From Geminicoccaceae bacterium (lineage in GTDB: Bacteria > Pseudomonadota > Alphaproteobacteria > Geminicoccales > Geminicoccaceae), in NCBI GenBank assembly GCA_025062095.1, contig JANXAZ010000028.1:1-42899 (forward strand): a DNA stretch of 42,899 bases, given 5' to 3'. This document shows positions 3,362 through 17,116 of the stretch, piece after piece. The translations under genes and the position numbers were made by a program. The notes below the pieces were generated by a model that did no database searches, was not told the DNA's origin, and worked only from the letters and a program-made list of their open reading frames with translations. Numbering within the stretch: position 1 is the stretch's first letter; the number at the start of each line of letters is the position of its first letter.

Positions 3362-3724
3362 GCGCGCCGAGCGTTCGGCTCGCGCGAGCGCGTCGAATGC
3401 GCCGCTGGGGTTCGGCTCCTTGCGCGCGCTCTCTTCCGCTCGGCCCGCCGCCACGACCCCGGCGGGCCGCTCGCTTTTCCGAGCGGGCCGAACCGAACGG
3501 CCCTCGTCCCCGGGTCGCGCGCGAAGCCGGAAGGACCACCGGCGGTGCGGGCGGCTTCGGCCGCTTCTCGAGGGCTCGGGCGCGCCGGTGGGAGGGAAGG
3601 CGGAAGCGGCCGGTGCGCGGGCGAGGATCGCCGGAAGAGCCACGGCCGCGCCTTCGGCGATCGGCCCGCGACCGTGCCGCGCCCCGAGATCGCGCCGCTC
3701 GAGCAGCGGTCGCATCGCACGTTC
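3362..3724. other. Intergenic region (363 bp) between convergent genes
   Basis: No convincing gene in either direction. Reading frames here are long only because the DNA is so GC-rich; their translations are Arg/Ala/Pro-rich and resemble no protein family. The one clear structure is the hairpin at 3441-3478. Confidence 0.6.
3441..3478 (+). terminator. Rho-independent-like terminator of the helical-protein gene
   Basis: Perfect 10-bp inverted repeat (CGGCCCGCCG at 3441-3450, CGGCGGGCCG at 3460-3469) with a 9-nt loop, followed by CTCGCTTTTC. The T-run is short and offset by 5 nt, so termination may be weak. It lies 80 bp downstream of the stop at 3361. Confidence 0.55.
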
Positions 3725-8786: not shown

Positions 8787-8949
8787 GCCGCCGCGAGAGG
8801 CGGCCGCGGCGCCGCTCGCGCACGGGCGACACCGCCCCCCGCCGTCCACGGGGTCCGAGGCCGCGCGAAAGAACGCGCTCGGGGCGCGCGGGAGGCGGTT
8901 GACCGCGCGCGGTTCGCGGCGCAGCCTGAAAACCGAGGAGAGCGTCGCG

Positions 8950-9834
8950 ATGCTGCGCAACCATCCGCCGCCTTCGGCCGATCTCGAGCGGTTGCGGGCC
9001 GTCGCGCACGCCATCCGTCGCACCTGCATCGAGCTCGCCACCGGCAAGGGCCAGGGCTATCTCGGCCAGGCGCTCGGCTTCGCCGACGTGATGGCGGCGG
9101 TCTATTTCCACGAGCTGCGGTGGGATCCGCGCGATCTCGACTGGCCCGAGCGCGACCGCTTCGTCCTCTCGACCGGGCATTACGCGATCGTGCTGTGGGC
9201 CACGCTCGCCGAAGCGGGGGCCATCCCGCGCGAGGAGCTCGCGACCTTCGCCACCGACGACAGCCGGTTGGACATGAGCACCCTCGATACCTCCCCGGGG
9301 GTCGAGGCGACGGGCGGTTCGTTGGGTCACGGGCTTCCGGTCGCGGTCGGGATGGCTCTGGGGCTCCGTCTTTCGGGATCGGACGCGCGCGTCTTTTGCG
9401 AGCTCTCGGACGGCGAGTGTCAGGAGGGCTCGACCTGGGAGGCGGCGCTGTCGGCCGCGACCTTCGGGCTCGATCGGTTGGTGGCGATCGTCGATGCCAA
9501 CGGCATCCAAGCCGACGGCGAAATCGTGGTCGCTCTCGAGCCCTTGGCCGAGAAATGGCGGGCCTTCGGCTTCGACACCCAGGAGATCGACGGCAACGAC
9601 ATGGCGGCGGTGGTCGCCGCGCTCGAGCGCGCCCGGGCCCGCGACGGTCGACCCAAGGCGATCGTCTGTCGCACCCTTCCCGGAAAAGGCGTGCCGCGGC
9701 TCGAGCGTCGCGAGAAGGCGCATTTCATCCGCGTCGAGGCGGACGAATGGGGGGCGATCCTGGCCGAACTCGAGGCCGAACGTGCCCGCGCATCGGGCAG
9801 AACCGCGCAGGAGGGCCGCGAAGGGGCGACGTAA
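8950..9834 (+). CDS. Transketolase, N-terminal (thiamine diphosphate-binding) subunit
   Basis: 294 residues equal to the PP domain of transketolase. Visible are VLSTGHYAIVLWATLAE, the GSLGHGLPVAVGMALG block, and the ThDP/Mg motif starting SDGECQEGSTWEAA and ending VDANGIQADG (GDG replaced by SDG). Split transketolases need a second subunit with the pyrimidine-binding and C-terminal domains; that subunit is encoded at 14435-15454, about 4.6 kb away, instead of directly downstream. ATG 8950 is preceded by GAGGAGAG. The sugar substrate is not evident. Split enzymes of this type act in several sugar catabolic routes as well as the pentose phosphate pathway. Confidence 0.92.
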   Translation: MLRNHPPPSADLERLRAVAHAIRRTCIELATGKGQGYLGQALGFADVMAAVYFHELRWDPRDLDWPERDRFVLSTGHYAIVLWATLAEAGAIPREELATFATDDSRLDMSTLDTSPGVEATGGSLGHGLPVAVGMALGLRLSGSDARVFCELSDGECQEGSTWEAALSAATFGLDRLVAIVDANGIQADGEIVVALEPLAEKWRAFGFDTQEIDGNDMAAVVAALERARARDGRPKAIVCRTLPGKGVPRLERREKAHFIRVEADEWGAILAELEAERARASGRTAQEGREGAT

Positions 9835-9848
9835 CAGCGGGATGTTAC
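9831..9848. repeat. Inverted repeat GTAACA-N6-TGTTAC, possible operator
   Basis: Perfect 6-bp arms with a 6-nt spacer. It overlaps the stop codon of the transketolase gene and ends 4 bp before the sigma-54 -24 element. The arm-N6-arm geometry resembles TyrR/PhhR-type operators (TGTAAA-N6-TTTACA), but the bases differ. No T-run follows, so it is not a terminator. Binding protein unknown. Confidence 0.4.
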
Positions 9849-9852
9849 CCGT

Positions 9853-9868
9853 TGGCACGCAGAATGCA
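9853..9868 (+). promoter_or_regulatory. Sigma-54 (RpoN) -24/-12 promoter of the amine dehydrogenase operon
   Basis: The 16 bases TGGCACGCAGAATGCA match the RpoN consensus TGGCAC-N5-TTGCW at every position except one (A for T just before TGC). The invariant GG and GC dinucleotides have correct spacing. Transcription would start near 9879, about 29 nt before the heavy-chain ATG, giving a short leader containing the Shine-Dalgarno. Sigma-54 promoters need an enhancer-binding ATPase; none is encoded in the window. Confidence 0.75.
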
Positions 9869-9907
9869 TAAAGTCGCGTCAGGGCGGGTCGAAGGAAGGG
9901 AGGTGCC

Positions 9908-11101
9908 ATGAGAGCGGCTGGCAACCGGATCGTGGCGACGGTCGCGGGTCTGTGGCTCGGAAGCACGGCTGCGATCGCCGCGGCGCAACAGGCCCCGGCG
10001 ATCCCCGCGCAGATGCCGCCGGCGGCGGCGCAACCGACCCAGGAGGACCATCCGACCGCGGTCCTACCCGAGCCGAGCCCGCGCTGGATCTACGTCCTGG
10101 AGCCGGTCTTCCCCTATCTCGTGGCCTCCAAGGTCTGGATCCTCGACGGCGACGATCTGTCGATCAAAGGCATGGTCAACGGCGGCTATCTACCCAATGC
10201 CGTATTGAGCCACGACAAGAGCCGGTTCTGGCTCGCCGAAACCTATTGGTCGCGCGGCTCGCGCGGGGTGCGCACCGACGTCGTGAGCGCCTGGGATACC
10301 AAGACGCTCGCCTTCGCCGGCGAAGTCGTGCTGCCGATGGGACGTTTCTTGGTCGTCCCCAAGAAACACAACGCCACGCTCACGAGCGACGGGCGCTATC
10401 TCCTCTCCTTCAACATGGACCCCGCCTTCTCCTTGAGCGTCGTCGACGTCAAGGAGATGAGGTATTTGGGCGAGCTCGACACGCAGGGGTGCTCGTTGGC
10501 GTTCCCCACCGGAAACAACAGCGTGGCCTCGATCTGCCCGGACGGCCGCTTCGTGCACCTGACCTTCGACGCCAACGGCCGGCTCTTGCGCACCGAACTC
10601 TCCGATCCCTGGTTCGATTCGCAGAACGATCCGGTGTTCGAGCACGCGGCCGTGCACCGACCGTCCAAGCGCGCTTTCTTCGTCTCCTACGAGGGCTGGG
10701 TCTATCCCGTGACCCTCGACGGCATGCCCAAAGTGGGCGAGCGTTGGAAGCTGCAGGGCCCGGGCGACGAGGAATGGCGGCCGGGCGGCTGGCAGCTCGC
10801 CGCCTTCCACGCCGCCTCCAACCGGCTTTTCGTGACCATGCACAAAGGCGGCAAATGGACCCACAAGCAGGCGGGCGACGAAGTCTGGGTTTACGACGTC
10901 GCGACGAAAAAGCGGATCCATCGTCTGCCGCTCGACCACCACAGCGCCACGATCGCGGTGAGCCAGGACGAAAAGCCGCTCCTGTTCGCGCTCACCGAGA
11001 CCGCCGTCTTGATGTCGTACGATACCACGACTTGGCAAAAGAAGGCCGAGCGCAGCGGCCTCGGTATCACGCCCTGGCTGCTTTATACCTTCGGCGAGTG
11101 A
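9908..11101 (+). CDS. mauB: TTQ amine dehydrogenase heavy (alpha) chain, MADH/AADH family
   Basis: 397 residues. A signal peptide covers about 1-26 (AGLWLGSTAAIAAA), then comes a seven-bladed propeller. Blocks such as HPTAVLPEP, YVLEPVFPYLV, GVRTDVVSAWD, THKQAGDEVWVYD and VSQDEKPLLFALTE match amine dehydrogenase heavy chains. Several of these (HPT-VL, YVL-PVF-LV, the NDPVFEHAAV-FVSYEGWVY region) look to me closer to the aromatic amine dehydrogenase chain (AauB) than to Paracoccus MauB, although SQDEKPLL is MADH-like. The heavy chain scaffolds the TTQ light chain in the periplasm. GGGAGG lies 5 nt before ATG 9908. First gene of a tightly packed five-gene operon. Substrate (methylamine versus arylalkylamine) cannot be decided by eye. 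Confidence 0.9.
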   Translation: MRAAGNRIVATVAGLWLGSTAAIAAAQQAPAIPAQMPPAAAQPTQEDHPTAVLPEPSPRWIYVLEPVFPYLVASKVWILDGDDLSIKGMVNGGYLPNAVLSHDKSRFWLAETYWSRGSRGVRTDVVSAWDTKTLAFAGEVVLPMGRFLVVPKKHNATLTSDGRYLLSFNMDPAFSLSVVDVKEMRYLGELDTQGCSLAFPTGNNSVASICPDGRFVHLTFDANGRLLRTELSDPWFDSQNDPVFEHAAVHRPSKRAFFVSYEGWVYPVTLDGMPKVGERWKLQGPGDEEWRPGGWQLAAFHAASNRLFVTMHKGGKWTHKQAGDEVWVYDVATKKRIHRLPLDHHSATIAVSQDEKPLLFALTETAVLMSYDTTTWQKKAERSGLGITPWLLYTFGE

Positions 11102-11110
11102 GGGGGCGCC

Positions 11111-11653
11111 TTGGATCTCCTTCACGCTCCCGCGCTTCATTGGGTGATCGCGCTCGTCCTCGCGGGGATCTTTCTGCCCGGCGCGTGGAGCAAGCTCAGG
11201 GCGATGGACGAAGTGATCGGCGTCGTCGCCGATTATCGGCTCCTGCCCGACCGTCTCGTCGAGCCGTTCGCGCGGGCCCTTCCCTGGGCCGAGATCGCGA
11301 CCGGCGTTTCGGTCCTGCTCCCGCCCTCGCGTCCCGCGGGTGCGGCGCTCGCGCTTGCGCTTCTGTGTCTTTTCGCGCTCGCCATGGCGATCAACCTCGC
11401 CCGCGGCCGGCGGGAGATCGACTGCGGCTGTTTCATCGGACGGCAGAAAGAGCGCATCGCCTGGTCGCTCGTGTTGCGCAACCTGCTCCTCGCCGCGGGC
11501 GCGGGCTTGCTGTTCTTCGAGCCCGAGAGCGTCGTCCCGCGGCTGCAGGACCTCGTCCCGATCGTTTTCGGCTCGATCGCGCTTCTTTCGCTTTATGCCG
11601 CCTTCAGCCGGCTCGCCGGGCTCGGGCCGCCTCGCACCGCGGCCGGGAGGTGA
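11111..11653 (+). CDS. mauE: MauE/AauE family membrane protein for amine dehydrogenase assembly
   Basis: 180 residues, about four membrane helices (near 8-25, 58-72, 78-97, 118-135 and possibly 143-165). It carries the family motif IDCGCFIG at about 103-110 between helices. MauE and MauD are required for correct disulfide formation and stability of the Cys-rich light chain; the CGC cysteines are plausible redox residues. The start is TTG 11111, 9 nt after the heavy-chain stop, with GAGGGGG upstream. An in-frame ATG further in would remove the first helix. Confidence 0.9.
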   Translation: MDLLHAPALHWVIALVLAGIFLPGAWSKLRAMDEVIGVVADYRLLPDRLVEPFARALPWAEIATGVSVLLPPSRPAGAALALALLCLFALAMAINLARGRREIDCGCFIGRQKERIAWSLVLRNLLLAAGAGLLFFEPESVVPRLQDLVPIVFGSIALLSLYAAFSRLAGLGPPRTAAGR

Positions 11654-11657
11654 GTCC

Positions 11658-12311
11658 GTGGATCCGCTCGTCGTCTCGGACGTCCTTCTGTGGCTCGTGG
11701 TGGCGGTCTTGAGCGTCACCGTGCTCGCACTCGCGCGGCAGGTGGGAGTGCTGCACGAGCGCGTGGCCCCGCTCGGGGCGATGGCCACCGCCACGGCGGT
11801 CGAGATCGGGGAGAAGGCCCCCGAGTTCGATCTCCTCGACCTCGAAGGCCGCAAGCTGCACGTGGGCGGGGTGCGCGCGGACGGCCGCAGTCAGCTGCTC
11901 CTGTTCGTCTCCCCGATCTGCCCCATGTGCAAGAAGCTCATGGGCGCGGTGCGGTCGTTCGCGCGCAGCGAGCGCAAAACGGTCGAGCTCGTGCTCATGG
12001 GCGACGGGGAGCGCGAGGCGCATCGAGCCATGGCTCGCGAGCACGGCGTGCAGGATCTGCCGTTCGCGATCTCGCCGATCGTGGGTATGCGCTTCGGGAT
12101 CGGAAAGCTGCCTTATGCCGTGCTCATCGACGCCGAAGGCGTGGTGCGCGCCAAGGGCATCGTGAACTCGCGCGAGCATCTCGAGAGCCTGCTCGTGGCT
12201 CAAGAGACCGGCTTCAGCTCGATCCAGGAGTATCTCGCGGGGACCGGGCGGGCGCGCCCGAACGGGGCCGCGGCCCGCTCTCCCGCCGCCGAAGGAGGGA
12301 CGAACCCGTGA
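11658..12311 (+). CDS. mauD: MauD/AauD thioredoxin-like protein for amine dehydrogenase maturation
   Basis: 217 residues. One N-terminal membrane anchor (VVSDVLLWLVVAVLSVTVLA) is followed by a periplasmic thioredoxin-fold domain. The redox motif is CPMC in FVSPICPMCKKLM, and the cis-Pro region reads IGKLPYAVLIDAEG. MauD is thought to act as a disulfide oxidase or isomerase for the many disulfides of the light chain. The start is GTG 11658, immediately after mauE with GGGAGG at the mauE end. Its TGA overlaps the light-chain GTG (GTGA), so translation is probably coupled. The C-terminus carries an extra Ala/Gly/Arg-rich tail. Confidence 0.92.
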   Translation: MDPLVVSDVLLWLVVAVLSVTVLALARQVGVLHERVAPLGAMATATAVEIGEKAPEFDLLDLEGRKLHVGGVRADGRSQLLLFVSPICPMCKKLMGAVRSFARSERKTVELVLMGDGEREAHRAMAREHGVQDLPFAISPIVGMRFGIGKLPYAVLIDAEGVVRAKGIVNSREHLESLLVAQETGFSSIQEYLAGTGRARPNGAAARSPAAEGGTNP

Positions 12312-12838
12312 CCATTCTCGACGCCTTCGACCGCATGATGGAGCACACCGCCCGGCGGATCGCCCAGCGCAGCTCGCGCCGGGGCATCCTCGCCCGCCTC
12401 GGCACGGTGCTCGTCGGCGGGGCCGTGCTGCCGCTCCTGCCCGTCGACAAGACCCGCGCCAAGCTCGCGCATGCGAGCGAATTCGCGAAAACGGCGCAGA
12501 CCACCGACCCCACCAAATGCAACTATTGGCGCCACTGTGCTTCCGACGGGTATCTCTGCTCGTGTTGCGGCGGTACGGTGAACGTCTGCCCGCCGGGTAC
12601 TTACGCCTCGCCCACGAGCTGGATCGGGACCTGCATCAATCCCGACGACGGTCAGGCCTATCTCATCGCCTATCAAGACTGCTGCGGCAAAGACAGCTGC
12701 GGTCTGTGCTTCTGCCTCGGCACCGAGGGCGAGATGCCGTCGTATCGGCCGGAGCTCAACAACGACATCGTGTGGTGCTTCGGCGCGCCTTCGATGGTCT
12801 ATCATTGCTCGAGCCAGGTGCTCATCGGCAGGGCGTGA
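12308..12838 (+). CDS. mauA: TTQ amine dehydrogenase light (beta) chain
   Basis: 176 residues. A twin-arginine-like export signal (SSRRGILARLGTVLVGGAV, about 22-40) precedes the compact Cys-rich catalytic domain from about residue 70. The tryptophan tryptophylquinone pair is Trp105 (in SWIGTC) and Trp156 (in NDIVWCF), 51 residues apart as in Paracoccus MADH (57/108). The catalytic Asp (MADH Asp76) is Asp124 in YQDCC. The residue matching MADH Thr122 is Ser168 in YHCSS. There are 14 cysteines, as I recall for AADH, against 12 in Paracoccus MADH; the additional ones are Cys87 and Cys131. The C-terminal half (TEGEMPSYRPE, WCFGA) is MADH-like, while CSCCGGT and CCGKDSCG are AADH-like. GGAGG precedes GTG 12308. 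Confidence 0.95.
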   Translation: MTILDAFDRMMEHTARRIAQRSSRRGILARLGTVLVGGAVLPLLPVDKTRAKLAHASEFAKTAQTTDPTKCNYWRHCASDGYLCSCCGGTVNVCPPGTYASPTSWIGTCINPDDGQAYLIAYQDCCGKDSCGLCFCLGTEGEMPSYRPELNNDIVWCFGAPSMVYHCSSQVLIGRA

Positions 12839-12843
12839 AGCCC

Positions 12844-13353
12844 GTGCGATATCTGCGCGGTAGCTTCCCGTTGCTCCCGTTCGCGCTCGCGTTGATTTCG
12901 GGGGCGGCGAGTGCGGTCGATTACGCCCCCGGCCGGCCGGTCGAGGTGCACGAGGGTGCGCGGCTCGACTACGCCTTGAAGTGCAAGGGGTGCCACGGCC
13001 TCTCCGGGCAGGGGACGCCGGGCCACGTGCCGCGCCTGGACGGCTTCGTGGGGCTGTTCACCCATCTGCCGGAGGGGCGCGAGTATCTGGTGCGCGTGCC
13101 CGGAGTCGCCCGCAGCGTTCTCGACGACGAGCGTCTGACGGCGGTGCTCAACTGGGTCCTCGCGACCTACGGACGCGACACCGTCGCACCGGGCTTCGCG
13201 CCCTACACGGTGGAAGAGGTCGCGGCCGCCCGCCGGCGTCCGCTCGAAGACCGCAAGGGCCTGCGCGAGCGCATGCTCGCGGAGCTGCGCACGCGGGGGT
13301 TGCTCGCGCCCGACGACGACGGCATCGGCGAGAGCCCCGAGCAGCGGGGATGA
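12844..13353 (+). CDS. Periplasmic monohaem cytochrome c, last gene of the amine dehydrogenase operon
   Basis: 169 residues. A signal peptide (about 1-24, ending SGAASA) precedes a single haem site CKGCH at Cys47, Cys50 and His51. The position matches the small monohaem cytochrome gene (orf-2) downstream of aauA in the Alcaligenes faecalis aromatic amine dehydrogenase cluster, as I remember it, and replaces the amicyanin gene mauC of mau clusters. It could therefore be the electron acceptor from TTQ. The only methionine in the mature protein is Met144, in a charged C-terminal helix, so the usual Met sixth ligand is not obvious; His61 and His74 are alternatives. GTG 12844 lies 5 nt after the light-chain stop; its Shine-Dalgarno is weak. 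Confidence 0.88.
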   Translation: MRYLRGSFPLLPFALALISGAASAVDYAPGRPVEVHEGARLDYALKCKGCHGLSGQGTPGHVPRLDGFVGLFTHLPEGREYLVRVPGVARSVLDDERLTAVLNWVLATYGRDTVAPGFAPYTVEEVAAARRRPLEDRKGLRERMLAELRTRGLLAPDDDGIGESPEQRG

Positions 13354-13366
13354 TCCCCTGTAGAGA

Positions 13367-14224
13367 CTAGAGGCGAGTGCGTTCGGACCGCCGGGCGAAC
13401 AGATCGGCCGTGGCGCGGGCGATGTTGCGGGCACGCTCTTCGGCCGGAAGGTGGGCATCCGCCTCCACCGGCGTCTCGACGGCGAGTGGCAAGCCTTCCG
13501 GCAGCCGGTCGAGGATCGCGTGCAACGGGACGACCCCGCGGCCGAGCGGGGCGCGCGCGTGCCGTGCTTCTCGGGGCAAGTCTTCGAGGGCGAGCGGGGC
13601 ACCGAAAGAATCGGCGAGCTGGGCGTAGAGCAAGCGCCCGCTCGGGATCGCCTCGAGATCCTCGGGTCGGCCGCCCGCGCGGTAAAAGTGGAGCAGATCG
13701 AGGATCACCCCGACGTTGGAGGCACCACAGGCTTCGACGAGAGCCAGAGCTTCGCGCCACGTGGGGACGTCGCGAAAGCGCATCGCTTCCACGCCGACGG
13801 CGAGGCCCAGGGGTGCGGCGAGCTCGGCCATGCGGGCCAAGAGTTCGACCTTGGGGCCGAACTCGGCCGACCGATCGTGCGCGGCCGGTCGATCGCCGAG
13901 GGTGAGCACGTAGCGCGCGCCCAAGGAGGCGGCGAGCTCGAAGGCCGGGCGGAGCGTGTCGATCCGGGTCGAAGGACCGAGGACGAACGCCTCGACGTCC
14001 AGCACCTCGAGGCCGGTTTCGGCGAGCGCGGCGCGCACGCGTCGCTCCGTTTCCGGACGGCCGAGGATCGGATGGTCGAGAGGCTTCTCGGTGGCGCTCG
14101 CCAGCGAAAGCCCGACCTTGCCGAAACCGGCGGCGGCCGCGGCGCGGATCAAGAGCTCCGGATCCGTGCGCTCGAGGCTGAGATCGGCGAGCGAAATCGC
14201 GGCGAGCGGAACGGCTCCGATCAC
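13367..14224 (-). CDS. Sugar-phosphate isomerase/epimerase-like TIM-barrel protein
   Basis: 285 residues of the xylose isomerase-like / AP endonuclease 2 superfamily. Likely metal ligands are Glu in VGVEAMRFRD, Asp in VGVILDLLHFY, and Glu in LAVETPVEAD near the C-terminus, with the order and spacing typical of the fold. Members isomerise or epimerise sugars, or act as dehydratases or hydrolases; the substrate cannot be told. It starts with GTG 14224 behind GAGGAG. It is convergent with the amine dehydrogenase operon (13 bp gap) and divergent from the transketolase C-terminal subunit, which suggests a sugar pathway shared with the split transketolase. Confidence 0.85.
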   Translation of the reverse strand: MIGAVPLAAISLADLSLERTDPELLIRAAAAAGFGKVGLSLASATEKPLDHPILGRPETERRVRAALAETGLEVLDVEAFVLGPSTRIDTLRPAFELAASLGARYVLTLGDRPAAHDRSAEFGPKVELLARMAELAAPLGLAVGVEAMRFRDVPTWREALALVEACGASNVGVILDLLHFYRAGGRPEDLEAIPSGRLLYAQLADSFGAPLALEDLPREARHARAPLGRGVVPLHAILDRLPEGLPLAVETPVEADAHLPAEERARNIARATADLFARRSERTRL

Positions 14225-14434
14225 GAGCCTTCTCCTCGATCGCGATCCGAGCGATCGCGTCGTGCAGAACTAACCGAGCGCGGCCTTCGCGCCCAGTCCG
14301 TCTTTACCTCTTTTCGCGCGAGGACCGGCGGGCGCCCGGCGACCTGCCGCGCCCCTTCGGATACGTCGCGGTCGACGAGGCGACGAGGACCGAGGATCCT
14401 GCTAAGAAGCGGACGAGCGCGGGGAGAGCATGCC

Positions 14435-15454
14435 GTGAGCCGAGCCGATCCGTTCGCCGCCGGGCCGCAGCCGGCTTACACCAAGGGGATGGGCGAGCTC
14501 GAGGAGATCCGGGACCGGCCGTTCGCGAAAGCACCTTTCGGGGAGGCGCTCGTCGCGGTGGCTCGGCGCGAGTCGCGGATCCTCGCCCTTAGCGCGGATC
14601 TCGCCAAATACACCGATCTCGGCCCCTTCGTGACGGCCTTTCCCGAGCGCTTCTTCAACGTCGGCATGGCCGAGCAAGCGCTTTTCGGTGTCGCCGCGGG
14701 GCTCGCCAAGACCGGCTTTCTTCCCTTCGCGACGACCTACGCGGTGTTCGCTACCCGTCGCGCCTACGACTTCATCGCGATCCAGATCGCGAAGAGCGCT
14801 CTGCCCGTGGCGATCGTGGCGGCGCTTCCCGGGCTGACCACCGGGTACGGGACCACGCACCAGGGCAACGAGGACCTCGCGCTCATGGCCGCGATCCCGG
14901 GCCTCACCGTCGTCGATCCGTGCGATGCCACCGAGATCGCGCAAGTGGTCGAGGCTTTCGCGGCCGAGCCGCGACCCCTTTATTTGCGCATCTTGCGCGG
15001 CAACGTTCCCGTCGTCCTCGATCCCGCATCCTATCGTTTCGCCTTCGGCCGGGCGCGGGTTCTGCGCGAGCCGGGCGAGATCGGGATCGTCGCGACCGGG
15101 CTCATGACCGAGCGCGCCCTCGATGCGGCGGAGGAGCTCGCGCGTCAGGGCCTCGCTGCGGGCGTGTTGCACGTTCCCTGCCTGGTGCCGTTCGACGCCC
15201 CGGCGGTCGTCGACTTCGCGCGCCGCGTCCAGGTGCTGGTTACGGCCGAGAACCATCAGGTCGAAGGCGGGCTCGGCACGCGGGTGGTAGAAGCGCTCTA
15301 TGCCGCCGGGCTTCACCGGCCCTTGCGGCGGGTGGGCATCCCGATGCGGTTCGTCGAATGCGGTACGGTGCCGACGCTTCAAGCCCGTTACGGCTTGACC
15401 GCGGGCGGGATCGTGGCCGCGGTGCGGGAGCTGTTGCGCGCCGGGACGCCCTGA
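14435..15454 (+). CDS. Transketolase, C-terminal (pyrimidine-binding) subunit
   Basis: 339 residues. The pyrimidine-binding domain has the catalytic Glu in NVGMAEQALFGVAAG, the FPFATTYAVF-like block and TTGYGTTHQGNEDLALM. The transketolase C-terminal domain follows (GIVATGLMTERALDAAEEL, VTAENHQVEGGLGTRVVE). It must pair with the N-terminal subunit at 8950-9834 for activity. Start taken at GTG 14435 with GGGGAGAG at 14421-14428; ATG 14489 is a possible alternative that would still keep the domain. Its 210-bp upstream region is shared with the divergent isomerase gene, so it has its own promoter. Confidence 0.92.
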   Translation: MSRADPFAAGPQPAYTKGMGELEEIRDRPFAKAPFGEALVAVARRESRILALSADLAKYTDLGPFVTAFPERFFNVGMAEQALFGVAAGLAKTGFLPFATTYAVFATRRAYDFIAIQIAKSALPVAIVAALPGLTTGYGTTHQGNEDLALMAAIPGLTVVDPCDATEIAQVVEAFAAEPRPLYLRILRGNVPVVLDPASYRFAFGRARVLREPGEIGIVATGLMTERALDAAEELARQGLAAGVLHVPCLVPFDAPAVVDFARRVQVLVTAENHQVEGGLGTRVVEALYAAGLHRPLRRVGIPMRFVECGTVPTLQARYGLTAGGIVAAVRELLRAGTP

Positions 15455-15629
15455 GGCCGGCCGCGGACCGCCGAAAATCCGCCAACCGAAGCCGTTCGCG
15501 GTTCACGATCGGCGTACCGATCACGCGGTACGACGATGCGATCCACGAATCGCTGTCCGGTTCGGGAAACGACCGCGAGCGCCTCGGATCGGCCTCGCGA
15601 GGACTCGCTCGACGTCGACTCGTCGAGAG

Positions 15630-16485
15630 CCGGTGGAAGATCTGTCGTCAGCGGGACGGCCACAGCGACACCGAAGATTGTCGACGCCGAGGCCAGCGCC
15701 GAGCTCGCGATCCCGCCCGTTGATCAGCGGCGGCTCGGTAACGGCGTTCCGCGATCAGACGAAGCCGGGAATCGAGCGAGACAAAACCGCCCTTCGGCTT
15801 CCGATCGTGGAGCGGCCCCGGCGCCTGCTGTGGCCGCCGGCCGAAAATACCATCCTGCCCGGCGAAGAGATGACTCTCTGCCGACGAGCCGCTGAAGCCG
15901 GAACTCGCGGCGACGGTCGAGGCCGTTACCGAGCGCGGCGGAGAAGTAGACTCGCTGCCAGATTTCCTGAGCAAGAAAGGCTCGATCGTACAAACTCCAT
16001 TTGTAGGTTCATCCGGGGGCAAAATAACAGTGCCCGGGTACGTCCATCTCGAGGAGAGCACTCTACCCGTACGCTCAAGGGAGCAAGCCTTCGTCGCGAC
16101 GGGGACCGATCGGTCGATGAACGAGGTCCACGACCGAGGGATCACTGCCGGTATCGAGGGGGGCCGGTGATCGACCCCCGCGTGTCGACCGCGAGGAGTA
16201 CGACGACCGCATCGTCGCCGAGATCCAATGCTCGCTCCTTCTCGCGGCGGACTTCACACACGGGTGAAACCGGCGCGCGTGGCCGCGTCGATTACGAGGC
16301 GGGCTTCGCGCCCGGTCTCGAGATTGCATTGATCGTCACCTGTCGCGCGGACGCGATCGACACGATTCATTTCGATACGCGTCGATACGATCACATCGTT
16401 TGGAAGAATCCCGAAGAATTGCGGGAAAGCCTCGACAACCGCATCCTCGCGACGATCGGCGAGGGGCCTGCGGCGAAGCGAAATC
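15630..16485 (+). pseudogene. Decayed gene resembling nucleoside-deoxyribosyltransferase/TIR-like fold proteins
   Basis: No intact gene covers this stretch, but four consecutive pieces in changing plus-strand frames read as one protein. Piece 1 (about 15633-15870) holds FRDQTKPGIER and AENTILPGEEM. Piece 2 (15874-16167) holds LSADEPLKPELAATVEAV, DFLSKKGSIVQTPFVGSSGG, KITVPGYVHLEE and AFVATGTDRSMNEVHDRGI. Piece 3 (16169-16264) holds RVDREEYDDRIVAEI and LLLAADFT. Piece 4 (about 16257-16482) holds VDYEAGFAPGLEIALIV, TCRADAIDTIHFDTRRYDHI and VWKNPEELRESLDNRI. The ADFT...YEAGFA...TCR...HFDTR-Y-HIVW order matches, from memory, a family with a nucleoside-deoxyribosyltransferase-like domain. Frame changes lie near 15870, 16168 and 16260; stops at 15871, 16168 and 16265 break it. 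Less GC-rich in places than neighbours, suggesting acquired DNA. Confidence 0.75.
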
Positions 16486-16492
16486 GGGGCGG

Positions 16493-17116
16493 CTACGGGG
16501 TCGCCGCCCGCGCCGCCAACCGCCCCGCCTCGGCGAGATCCTCGGGTGTGTTGACGTTGAAGAAAGGATCGAAGGGCTCGGTGGGCCAGTCGACCACCGC
16601 GAGGCGGTAGCGCGCCGTCCAGACGTCGATCTTCCGCAAGCCCTCCTCGAGAAGCGCGCGGCGCAGATCCGCGGCGAGTCGCATAGGCCAGAGGCCGAAG
16701 ACGGGATGCGCACGGCCCGCCGAGGCGGCGCAGGCGAGCTCCGCACCCTCCCGCTCGACCGCTGCGAGCAGGCGGGCGACGAGATCGACGGGGAAAAAGG
16801 GCGTGTCGGCGGCGAGGCTCGCGACCCAGGGAAGCGGCGGATCCGCGCGCATCGCCGCCTCCATCCCCGCGAGCACGCCCGCCAGCGGTCCCACGTAGCC
16901 GGGGACGGGATCGGGAACGACCTCGAGCCCGAAGCGCGCGAAGCGCGAAGCATCGCCGTTGGCGTTGAGCACGAGTGCGCTCACCTGACCGCGAGCGCGT
17001 TCGATCACCGCCTCGAGGAGCGTGCCGGAGCCGAGCGGAAGAAGGCATTTGTCCCCACCGCCCATGCGCCGGGCGAGCCCGCCCGCGAGGATCACCCCCA
17101 GAACCGGCGGGGTCAC
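16493..17116 (-). CDS. mobA: Molybdenum cofactor guanylyltransferase MobA
   Basis: 207 residues; transfers GMP from GTP to molybdopterin to form the guanine dinucleotide cofactor used by formate dehydrogenases of the DMSO reductase family. The nucleotide-binding loop [20 protein letters not shown] is at about 10-29, the conserved [12 protein letters not shown] follows near 76, and the metal-binding AADTPFF near 102. The C-terminal [18 protein letters not shown] block is typical. GTG 17116 is preceded by GGAGGAAGG. It lies downstream of fdhD on the same strand, 141 bp apart, so the two probably form a cofactor operon serving the formate dehydrogenase encoded about 11 kb away. Confidence 0.95.

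What the first reader, a model, noticed from the sequence alone, without database searches (positions are those of the whole stretch)
15630..16485. Hidden, multiply frameshifted gene in an apparently empty kilobase
Four adjacent plus-strand segments in changing frames join into one coherent protein whose end carries ADFT, YEAGFA, TCRADAID, HFDTRRYDHIVW and NPEELRESL in the order I recall from proteins with a nucleoside-deoxyribosyltransferase/TIR-like domain. At least three frameshifts are needed (near 15870, 16168, 16260). Such genes are often in accessory or defence-like settings, so this is probably an acquired gene now decaying. An automated annotation would leave it blank or call a false frame.
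Basis: partly seen in the sequence, partly recalled or inferred. Interest (0 to 1): 0.75.

Follow-up and report, generated by a model that had tools for sequence, protein, structure and literature searches.

The report
Decayed phage-type enzyme gene remnant
The apparently empty kilobase holds the shattered remains of a gene of a family that is often carried by phages and resembles enzymes that cut nucleotides; most related species compared lack any gene there, so it looks like an acquired gene that has died, which is ordinary though well documented.

Summary
Confirmed. Window 15536-16481 (+) is a pseudogene in five pieces whose frame changes four times. The relative L010 aligns collinearly with all five: chain score 231.7, against at most 62.7 in 500 dinucleotide shuffles.

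It is decay rather than a few read errors: 37 of 48 residues invariant in nine relatives survive (77%; each relative, left out in turn, keeps 87-100%), and 9 of 13 invariant in a set of 24.

L010 has a predicted C-terminal nucleoside-deoxyribosyltransferase/TIR-type fold. Relatives occur in 38 IMG/VR contigs and, in bacteria, next to core genes in five of six loci scanned.

The flanking transketolase and mobA genes are 19-91 bases apart in four of six genomes of the genus, 1044 here and 1222 in a sister species, which holds an unrelated DUF3800 gene broken by a stop. That coincidence is not significant against local insertion rates. An anti-phage role for intact copies is inference.

The parts
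15536..15760 (+). Piece A (frame 2): remnant of the N-terminal zinc-ribbon-like part, including the probable old start codon
   Evidence: tblastn with L010 residues 11-86, 38% identity, 45.8 bits; also matched by L013, L016, L026 and L117
15795..15875 (+). Piece B (frame 0): remnant of the helical middle part; the weakest piece
   Evidence: tblastn with L010 residues 98-134, match 15795-15905, 20 bits
15874..16155 (+). Piece C (frame 1): middle part and first strand of the C-terminal domain, conserved MWF lost
   Evidence: tblastn with L010 (37.7 bits) and L015 (50.4 bits); profile A1 match 15889-16158, E 2e-7
16157..16261 (+). Piece D (frame 2): C-terminal domain up to ADFT, four codons missing
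   Evidence: tblastn with L010 residues 215-252, 53% identity; 7 of 11 invariant columns kept
16263..16481 (+). Piece E (frame 0): end of the C-terminal domain with the conserved glutamate; no stop where the relatives end
   Evidence: tblastn with L014 68% identity, 103 bits; phrog_16139 E 5.5e-19; frame stays open to 16610
15455..16492 (.). Whole stretch between transketolase and mobA; only 19-91 bases (between protein matches) in four of the five other genomes of the genus
14413..15454 (+). Flanking gene: transketolase C-terminal half (start approximate)
   Evidence: PF02779 6.2e-27, PF02780 4.4e-24 for 14600-15451; aligned block with G005
16493..17116 (-). Flanking gene: mobA (MobA-like NTP transferase)
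   Evidence: PF12804 1.5e-38

Best explanation
The stretch is the dead remnant of a single acquired gene. The intact protein had a zinc-ribbon-like N-terminus, a helical middle and a C-terminal nucleoside-deoxyribosyltransferase/TIR-type domain. In intact relatives that domain most likely splits an N-glycosidic bond (of a nucleotide, NAD or DNA), and the protein most likely acts as a lone phage-borne or anti-phage effector. A copy landed between the convergent genes for transketolase and mobA in this species' lineage, was not kept by selection and broke up by small insertions or deletions and substitutions; it no longer makes the protein. Shown here: homology, collinearity, breakage, loss of conserved residues, near-empty sites in four sister species, predicted fold of an intact relative. 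Inferred: direction of transfer, glycosidase chemistry, anti-phage role.
For: Five collinear matches to L010, none of 500 shuffles near the chain score. 37 of 48 columns invariant in nine relatives are kept (77%); each relative left out in turn keeps 87-100% (46 of 46 for L014 down to 48 of 55 for L018 and L019). Of 13 columns invariant in the 24 sequences of A2, 4 are changed (M183, F185, Y250, V263; read off the alignment). Only copy in its own genome; no match in the five other genomes of the genus, full-length matches in 2 of 31 genomes of the family, G012 and G018. Convergent flanking genes 19, 26, 60 and 91 bases apart in four sister species. Fold of L010: mean pLDDT 90.8; best VIA Z 15.1, rmsd 2.3, 123 aligned (DNPH1), and 14.2, rmsd 2.8, 135 aligned (TIR-APAZ). 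Relatives in 38 IMG/VR contigs; copy L118 beside a phage-integrase-like protein.
Against: No reads were available, so some of the frame changes could be errors. Pooled GC3 of the pieces (220 of 304, 0.72) is lower than the 0.82-0.86 of four nearby genes but not strongly foreign, so transfer rests mainly on the near-empty sites and patchy distribution. No integrase family was searched for in the window as a whole; no tRNA or flanking repeat marks how it arrived. The conserved glutamate and 21 of 24 invariant columns of piece E survive, and identity to L010 in pieces A, B and C is within the range of the other relatives, so decay is visible mainly at the invariant columns and in the frames. A late, partly constrained fragment cannot be excluded.
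Confidence: 0.92

Rival explanations
1. The gene is alive and the frame changes are sequencing or assembly errors.
For: Piece E keeps 21 of 24 invariant columns and its best relative is 68% identical. No reads could be checked.
Against: Eleven of 48 invariant residues are replaced and four codons are missing, which a few base-level errors would not give. The nearby genes scanned mostly give normal Pfam matches in single frames, and the assembly is scored 99.57% complete.
Confidence: 0.04
2. Part of the gene, the C-terminal end alone (piece E, inside the open frame 15633-16610), is still expressed and useful as a short protein.
For: Piece E is the best kept of the larger pieces, and its frame is open for 325 codons.
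Against: The end is also well conserved among the relatives, so this needs no special cause: over piece E the window is 59% identical to L010, against 59-78% for the eight other relatives. The first strand and helices of the fold lie in other frames. No promoter-like site was found at 15300-16700 (sigma-70 consensus only).
Confidence: 0.03
3. The transketolase-mobA junction is a true hotspot that repeatedly takes up lone accessory genes, which then die there.
For: Two of six genomes of the genus carry unrelated inserts at this junction, and both inserts are broken: this one, and a DUF3800 gene with an in-frame stop in G005.
Against: Insert-sized gaps between the window and G005 are common on this contig: in 36.8 kb, 2 in the window and 7 in G005 at 700 bases or more, 2 and 6 at 1000 or more. 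A shared junction then has a chance of 0.25-0.49 for 45 to 25 assumed junctions. Only six genomes were compared; the adjacency was not seen in the 21 family loci outside the genus, whose flanks are 1.5 kb or less.
Confidence: 0.15

Closest known systems
phrog_16139 (PHROGs family, unknown function)
   Same: Three relatives (L010, L080, L117) match it at 1e-43 to 1e-45; window piece E matches at 5.5e-19.
   Different: The window copy is broken; piece C matches only at 0.081, pieces A and D not at all; piece B was not scanned.
Nucleoside 2-deoxyribosyltransferases and DNPH1 (PF05014 fold)
   Same: C-terminal domain fold of L010: VIA Z up to 15.1, rmsd 2.3, 123 aligned; a conserved glutamate in the YEAGFA motif, which the window keeps (that this is the catalytic one is recalled, not tested).
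   Different: Roughly 7-18% sequence identity in the VIA list, PF05014 below its gathering score in all six relatives scanned, extra N-terminal and middle parts.
TIR domains of SPARTA (TIR-APAZ) and TIR-STING
   Same: Foldseek rank 1 is TIR-APAZ 8i87_C, E 4.1e-4, TMq 0.34 over 137 columns; SfSTING also listed. PADLOC TIR effector model 1.5e-7 and 2.6e-7 for two relatives.
   Different: The matches cover only the C-terminal domain; Pfam TIR and TIR_2 are below their cut-offs where they appear.
DUF3800 (PF12686) remnant at the same junction in G005
   Same: Same place, lone gene, broken.
   Different: Unrelated protein; one in-frame stop is the only break seen.

Membership tests
phrog_16139-like lone NDT/TIR-type proteins (relatives L010, L013-L019, L026, L117, L118) | Homology over the full length, in order | tested here: met
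   Five collinear matches covering L010 residues 11-322
phrog_16139-like lone NDT/TIR-type proteins (relatives L010, L013-L019, L026, L117, L118) | One open reading frame | tested here: not met
   Frame order 2, 0, 1, 2, 0; the window is a pseudogene of the family, not a working member
phrog_16139-like lone NDT/TIR-type proteins (relatives L010, L013-L019, L026, L117, L118) | Residues invariant in the 24 sequences of A2 | tested here: not met
   9 of 13 kept; M183, F185, Y250 and V263 changed
Nucleoside 2-deoxyribosyltransferase (PF05014) | Profile match at the gathering score | tested here: not met
   Six relatives 18.5-26.5 bits against 28.8; no match for the four window stretches scanned
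Nucleoside 2-deoxyribosyltransferase (PF05014) | Fold | tested here: met
   For the predicted model of L010 only: VIA Z 15.1, rmsd 2.3, 123 aligned residues
Nucleoside 2-deoxyribosyltransferase (PF05014) | Glycosidic bond cleavage | not testable with these tools
   Needs an assay on an intact relative
CBASS or other signal-activated TIR effector | Match to PADLOC effector model | tested here: inconclusive
   Two relatives match (1.5e-7, 2.6e-7); the two window pieces scanned do not
CBASS or other signal-activated TIR effector | Cyclase or sensor partner gene next door | not tested
   Window neighbours are transketolase and mobA; neighbours of relatives were read from mechanical ORFs and only ten in six loci were scanned

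The most novel reading that the evidence does not exclude
The convergent transketolase-mobA junction in this genus acts as a landing and burial site: lone phage-type accessory genes arrive without an integrase of their own, the NDT/TIR-type gene in one species and a DUF3800 gene in another, and decay in place because transcription from both sides converges on them.
Probability: 0.12. Interest if true: 0.45.

Novelty: new member of a known kind. Interest (0 to 1): 0.25.

Why it matters
It is a clean, checkable case of a short acquired gene that died, and that could be missed or mis-called (a 325-codon open frame runs through it). It also points to a family of unknown function in PHROGs with a confident fold prediction and a likely glycosidase domain, found on viral contigs and plasmids and beside core genes. 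The family, not this copy, would be worth an experiment.

Tried and rejected
Hotspot idea: tested against G005 along window 6060-42815 and found not significant. The number of junctions was assumed (25-45) and gaps are those between aligned blocks of at least 120 columns, not genes. An earlier run used 6 insert-sized gaps in G005; the recount at 700 bases gives 7. At a threshold of 500 bases, 2 of 11 gaps are large in both genomes, with chances of 0.41-0.65.

Mobile-element marks: one imperfect 16-base direct repeat pair, whose copies lie 370 bases apart inside the stretch, and five inverted pairs, none of them flanking the insert as a pair; no tRNA; no Rfam match at gathering score in the whole window; no promoter- or terminator-like site at 15300-16700.

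Second copy in the own genome: none at the thresholds used. DNA matches in sister genomes were short, 28-44 bases. Nothing in the PDB by sequence up to E 1. The N-terminal and middle parts were not folded or searched alone; the VIA list covers residues 174-316 only, so nothing is claimed about their fold.

Literature: I saw search listings only; the two motif strings were found in no paper. That is no proof that the family is undescribed: the library lacks most subscription papers. I read passages of PMC5635113, PMC3710099 and PMC11204291, no whole paper.

Rows dropped or mended: one search translated the wrong strand for L013, L017, L019, L021, L023 and L025; one search repeated these on the right strand and the rows for them are not used. 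L014 lies near a contig edge and lacks the N-terminal part, so it is a relative for pieces B to E only. L073 was dropped from the neighbour comparison because the ORF picker took an antisense frame there. L021-L025 and L011, more distant relatives, were left out of the nine-sequence alignment. Of 38 viral-contig loci, 22 entered alignment A2; the rest were left out as near-identical or because the matched stretch held a stop.

Full report
What is there. A relative, L010 (Rhodobiaceae MAG, found with the 59-residue end piece), aligns in five collinear blocks from 15533 to 16469. The chain score is 231.7; the best of 500 dinucleotide shuffles is 62.7. Four codons are missing in the fourth piece, and the frame of the last piece stays open past the usual end, to 16610.

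Why it is dead. In an alignment of nine relatives (L010, L013-L019 and L026; L014 lacks the N-terminal part), 48 columns are invariant, and all 48 are covered by a window piece; 37 are kept, 77%. When each relative is left out in turn it keeps 87-100% of the columns invariant in the rest: 46 of 46 for L014, 48 of 49 for L013 and L015, 48 of 51 for L026, 48 of 52 for L010, L016 and L017, 48 of 55 for L018 and L019. The window is below all nine. In the wider set of 24 sequences 13 columns are invariant, of which four are changed. By piece, invariant columns kept are A 3 of 4, B 0 of 0, C 6 of 9, D 7 of 11, E 21 of 24. Plain identity to L010 is less telling: in pieces D and E (57 and 59%) the window lies at the low end of the other relatives (56-83% and 59-78%), but in A, B and C (41, 41 and 29%) it is within their range (8-45, 13-44 and 25-37%). 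Codon-position GC still shows a coding rhythm in pieces B to E.

Where it sits. The neighbours are a transketolase C-terminal half ending at 15454 and mobA ending at 16493 on the other strand. In all six genomes of the genus that were searched, these two genes are neighbours and convergent. The gap between the protein matches is 60, 91, 26 and 19 bases in G001, G002, G003 and G004, 1044 here and 1222 in G005. In G005 the insert is unrelated: a DUF3800 gene (PF12686, 1.4e-6 and 1.4e-7 for its two halves, 3.2e-18 when the stop is read through by the search), interrupted by one in-frame TAG. The two inserts share no DNA match with E below 0.2 beyond the flanking genes. In the 21 family loci outside the genus, transketolase was not found in the held flank of mobA, 1.5 kb or less. 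The coincidence of two inserts at one junction is not strong: of 11 gaps between aligned blocks in window 6060-42815, 2 are at least 700 bases in the window, 7 in G005 and 1 in both, which gives a chance of 0.29-0.49 of sharing a junction for 45 to 25 assumed junctions.

What the family is. Full-length profile matches occur in 2 of 31 genomes of the family, G012 and G018, and partial ones in G009 and G316; none in the other five genomes of the genus. Of 289 genomes of the class, 13 have a match at E 1e-10, the own genome included. Of 72,556 plasmid records, 6 match. In IMG/VR, 38 of 78 candidate stretches are confirmed relatives; several rows are near-identical. Of 11 copies with usable neighbours, 8 have a lower GC3 than the next mechanical ORF on both sides (L010, L026, L072, L074, L075, L078, L117, L118); L011, L076 and L077 do not. 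Ten neighbours in six loci were scanned with Pfam: COX15 and MerR (L072), a dihydroxy-acid dehydratase end, GIY-YIG and acyl-CoA dehydrogenase (L074), release factor 3 and one protein without a match (L075), exonuclease VII small subunit (L078), gamma-glutamyltranspeptidase (L117) and a phage-integrase-like protein (L118). So five of these six loci have a core gene on at least one side.

What it did. AlphaFold2 on L010 with 24 rows gives mean pLDDT 90.8 and pTM 0.65. Foldseek ranks TIR-APAZ 8i87_C first (E 4.1e-4, TMq 0.34) and a Trypanosoma brucei deoxyribosyltransferase second (E 4.9e-4). VIA-align puts human DNPH1 on top (Z 15.1, rmsd 2.3, 123 aligned), with TIR-APAZ at 14.2 (rmsd 2.8, 135 aligned); rows within 1 are tied. 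One paper says that deoxyribosyltransferases, DNPH1 and a Thoeris TIR protein share an active site with a tyrosine bonded to the catalytic glutamate (PMC11204291, passage). Another proposes that deoxyribosyltransferase domains fused to abortive-infection N-terminal domains act on DNA and could cause cell suicide (PMC3710099, passages). From these, a glycosidase used in phage conflict is the best guess for intact copies; no call tests activity.

Comparison with what is known. Gene turnover between conserved neighbours, in many hotspots without recognisable mobile elements, is described (PMC5635113, abstract and passages). This locus is a small example with a dead gene. The family matches a PHROGs family of unknown function. 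I rate it a new member of a known kind.

Noticed in passing
window 8899-15454: The two halves of a transketolase (PF00456 at 8899-9834; PF02779/PF02780 at 14600-15451) are separated by a methylamine-dehydrogenase cluster (heavy chain PF06433 9908-11101, AhpC-TSA protein ending 12311, further small frames to about 13353; the MauE and light-chain labels are recalled)..
   Followed up: partly
window 13367-14224 (-): A xylose-isomerase-like TIM-barrel gene (PF01261) lies where G005 has only 95 bases between aligned blocks, so it may be another species-specific insert close by..
   Followed up: partly
L046 3118-3876 (G005): DUF3800 gene interrupted by one in-frame TAG at 3523-3525, at the same junction as the window's pseudogene..
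   Followed up: yes
L010, L011, L015-L018 and L024, N-termini: The N-terminal part looks like a zinc ribbon with two cysteine pairs in some relatives (L011, L017, L018, L024) and with most cysteines lost in others (L010, L015, L016, the window). Seen by eye.
   Followed up: no
L126, L131, L127 (G018, G019): Other DUF3800 matches in the family also carry stops or split frames (2 TAA in one; 11 stops in a weak 25-bit match), so broken DUF3800 copies may be common..
   Followed up: no
G005:C1:1692189-1697316 and 1712287-1716906: Insertions of about 5.1 and 4.6 kb in G005 relative to the window; content not examined..
   Followed up: no
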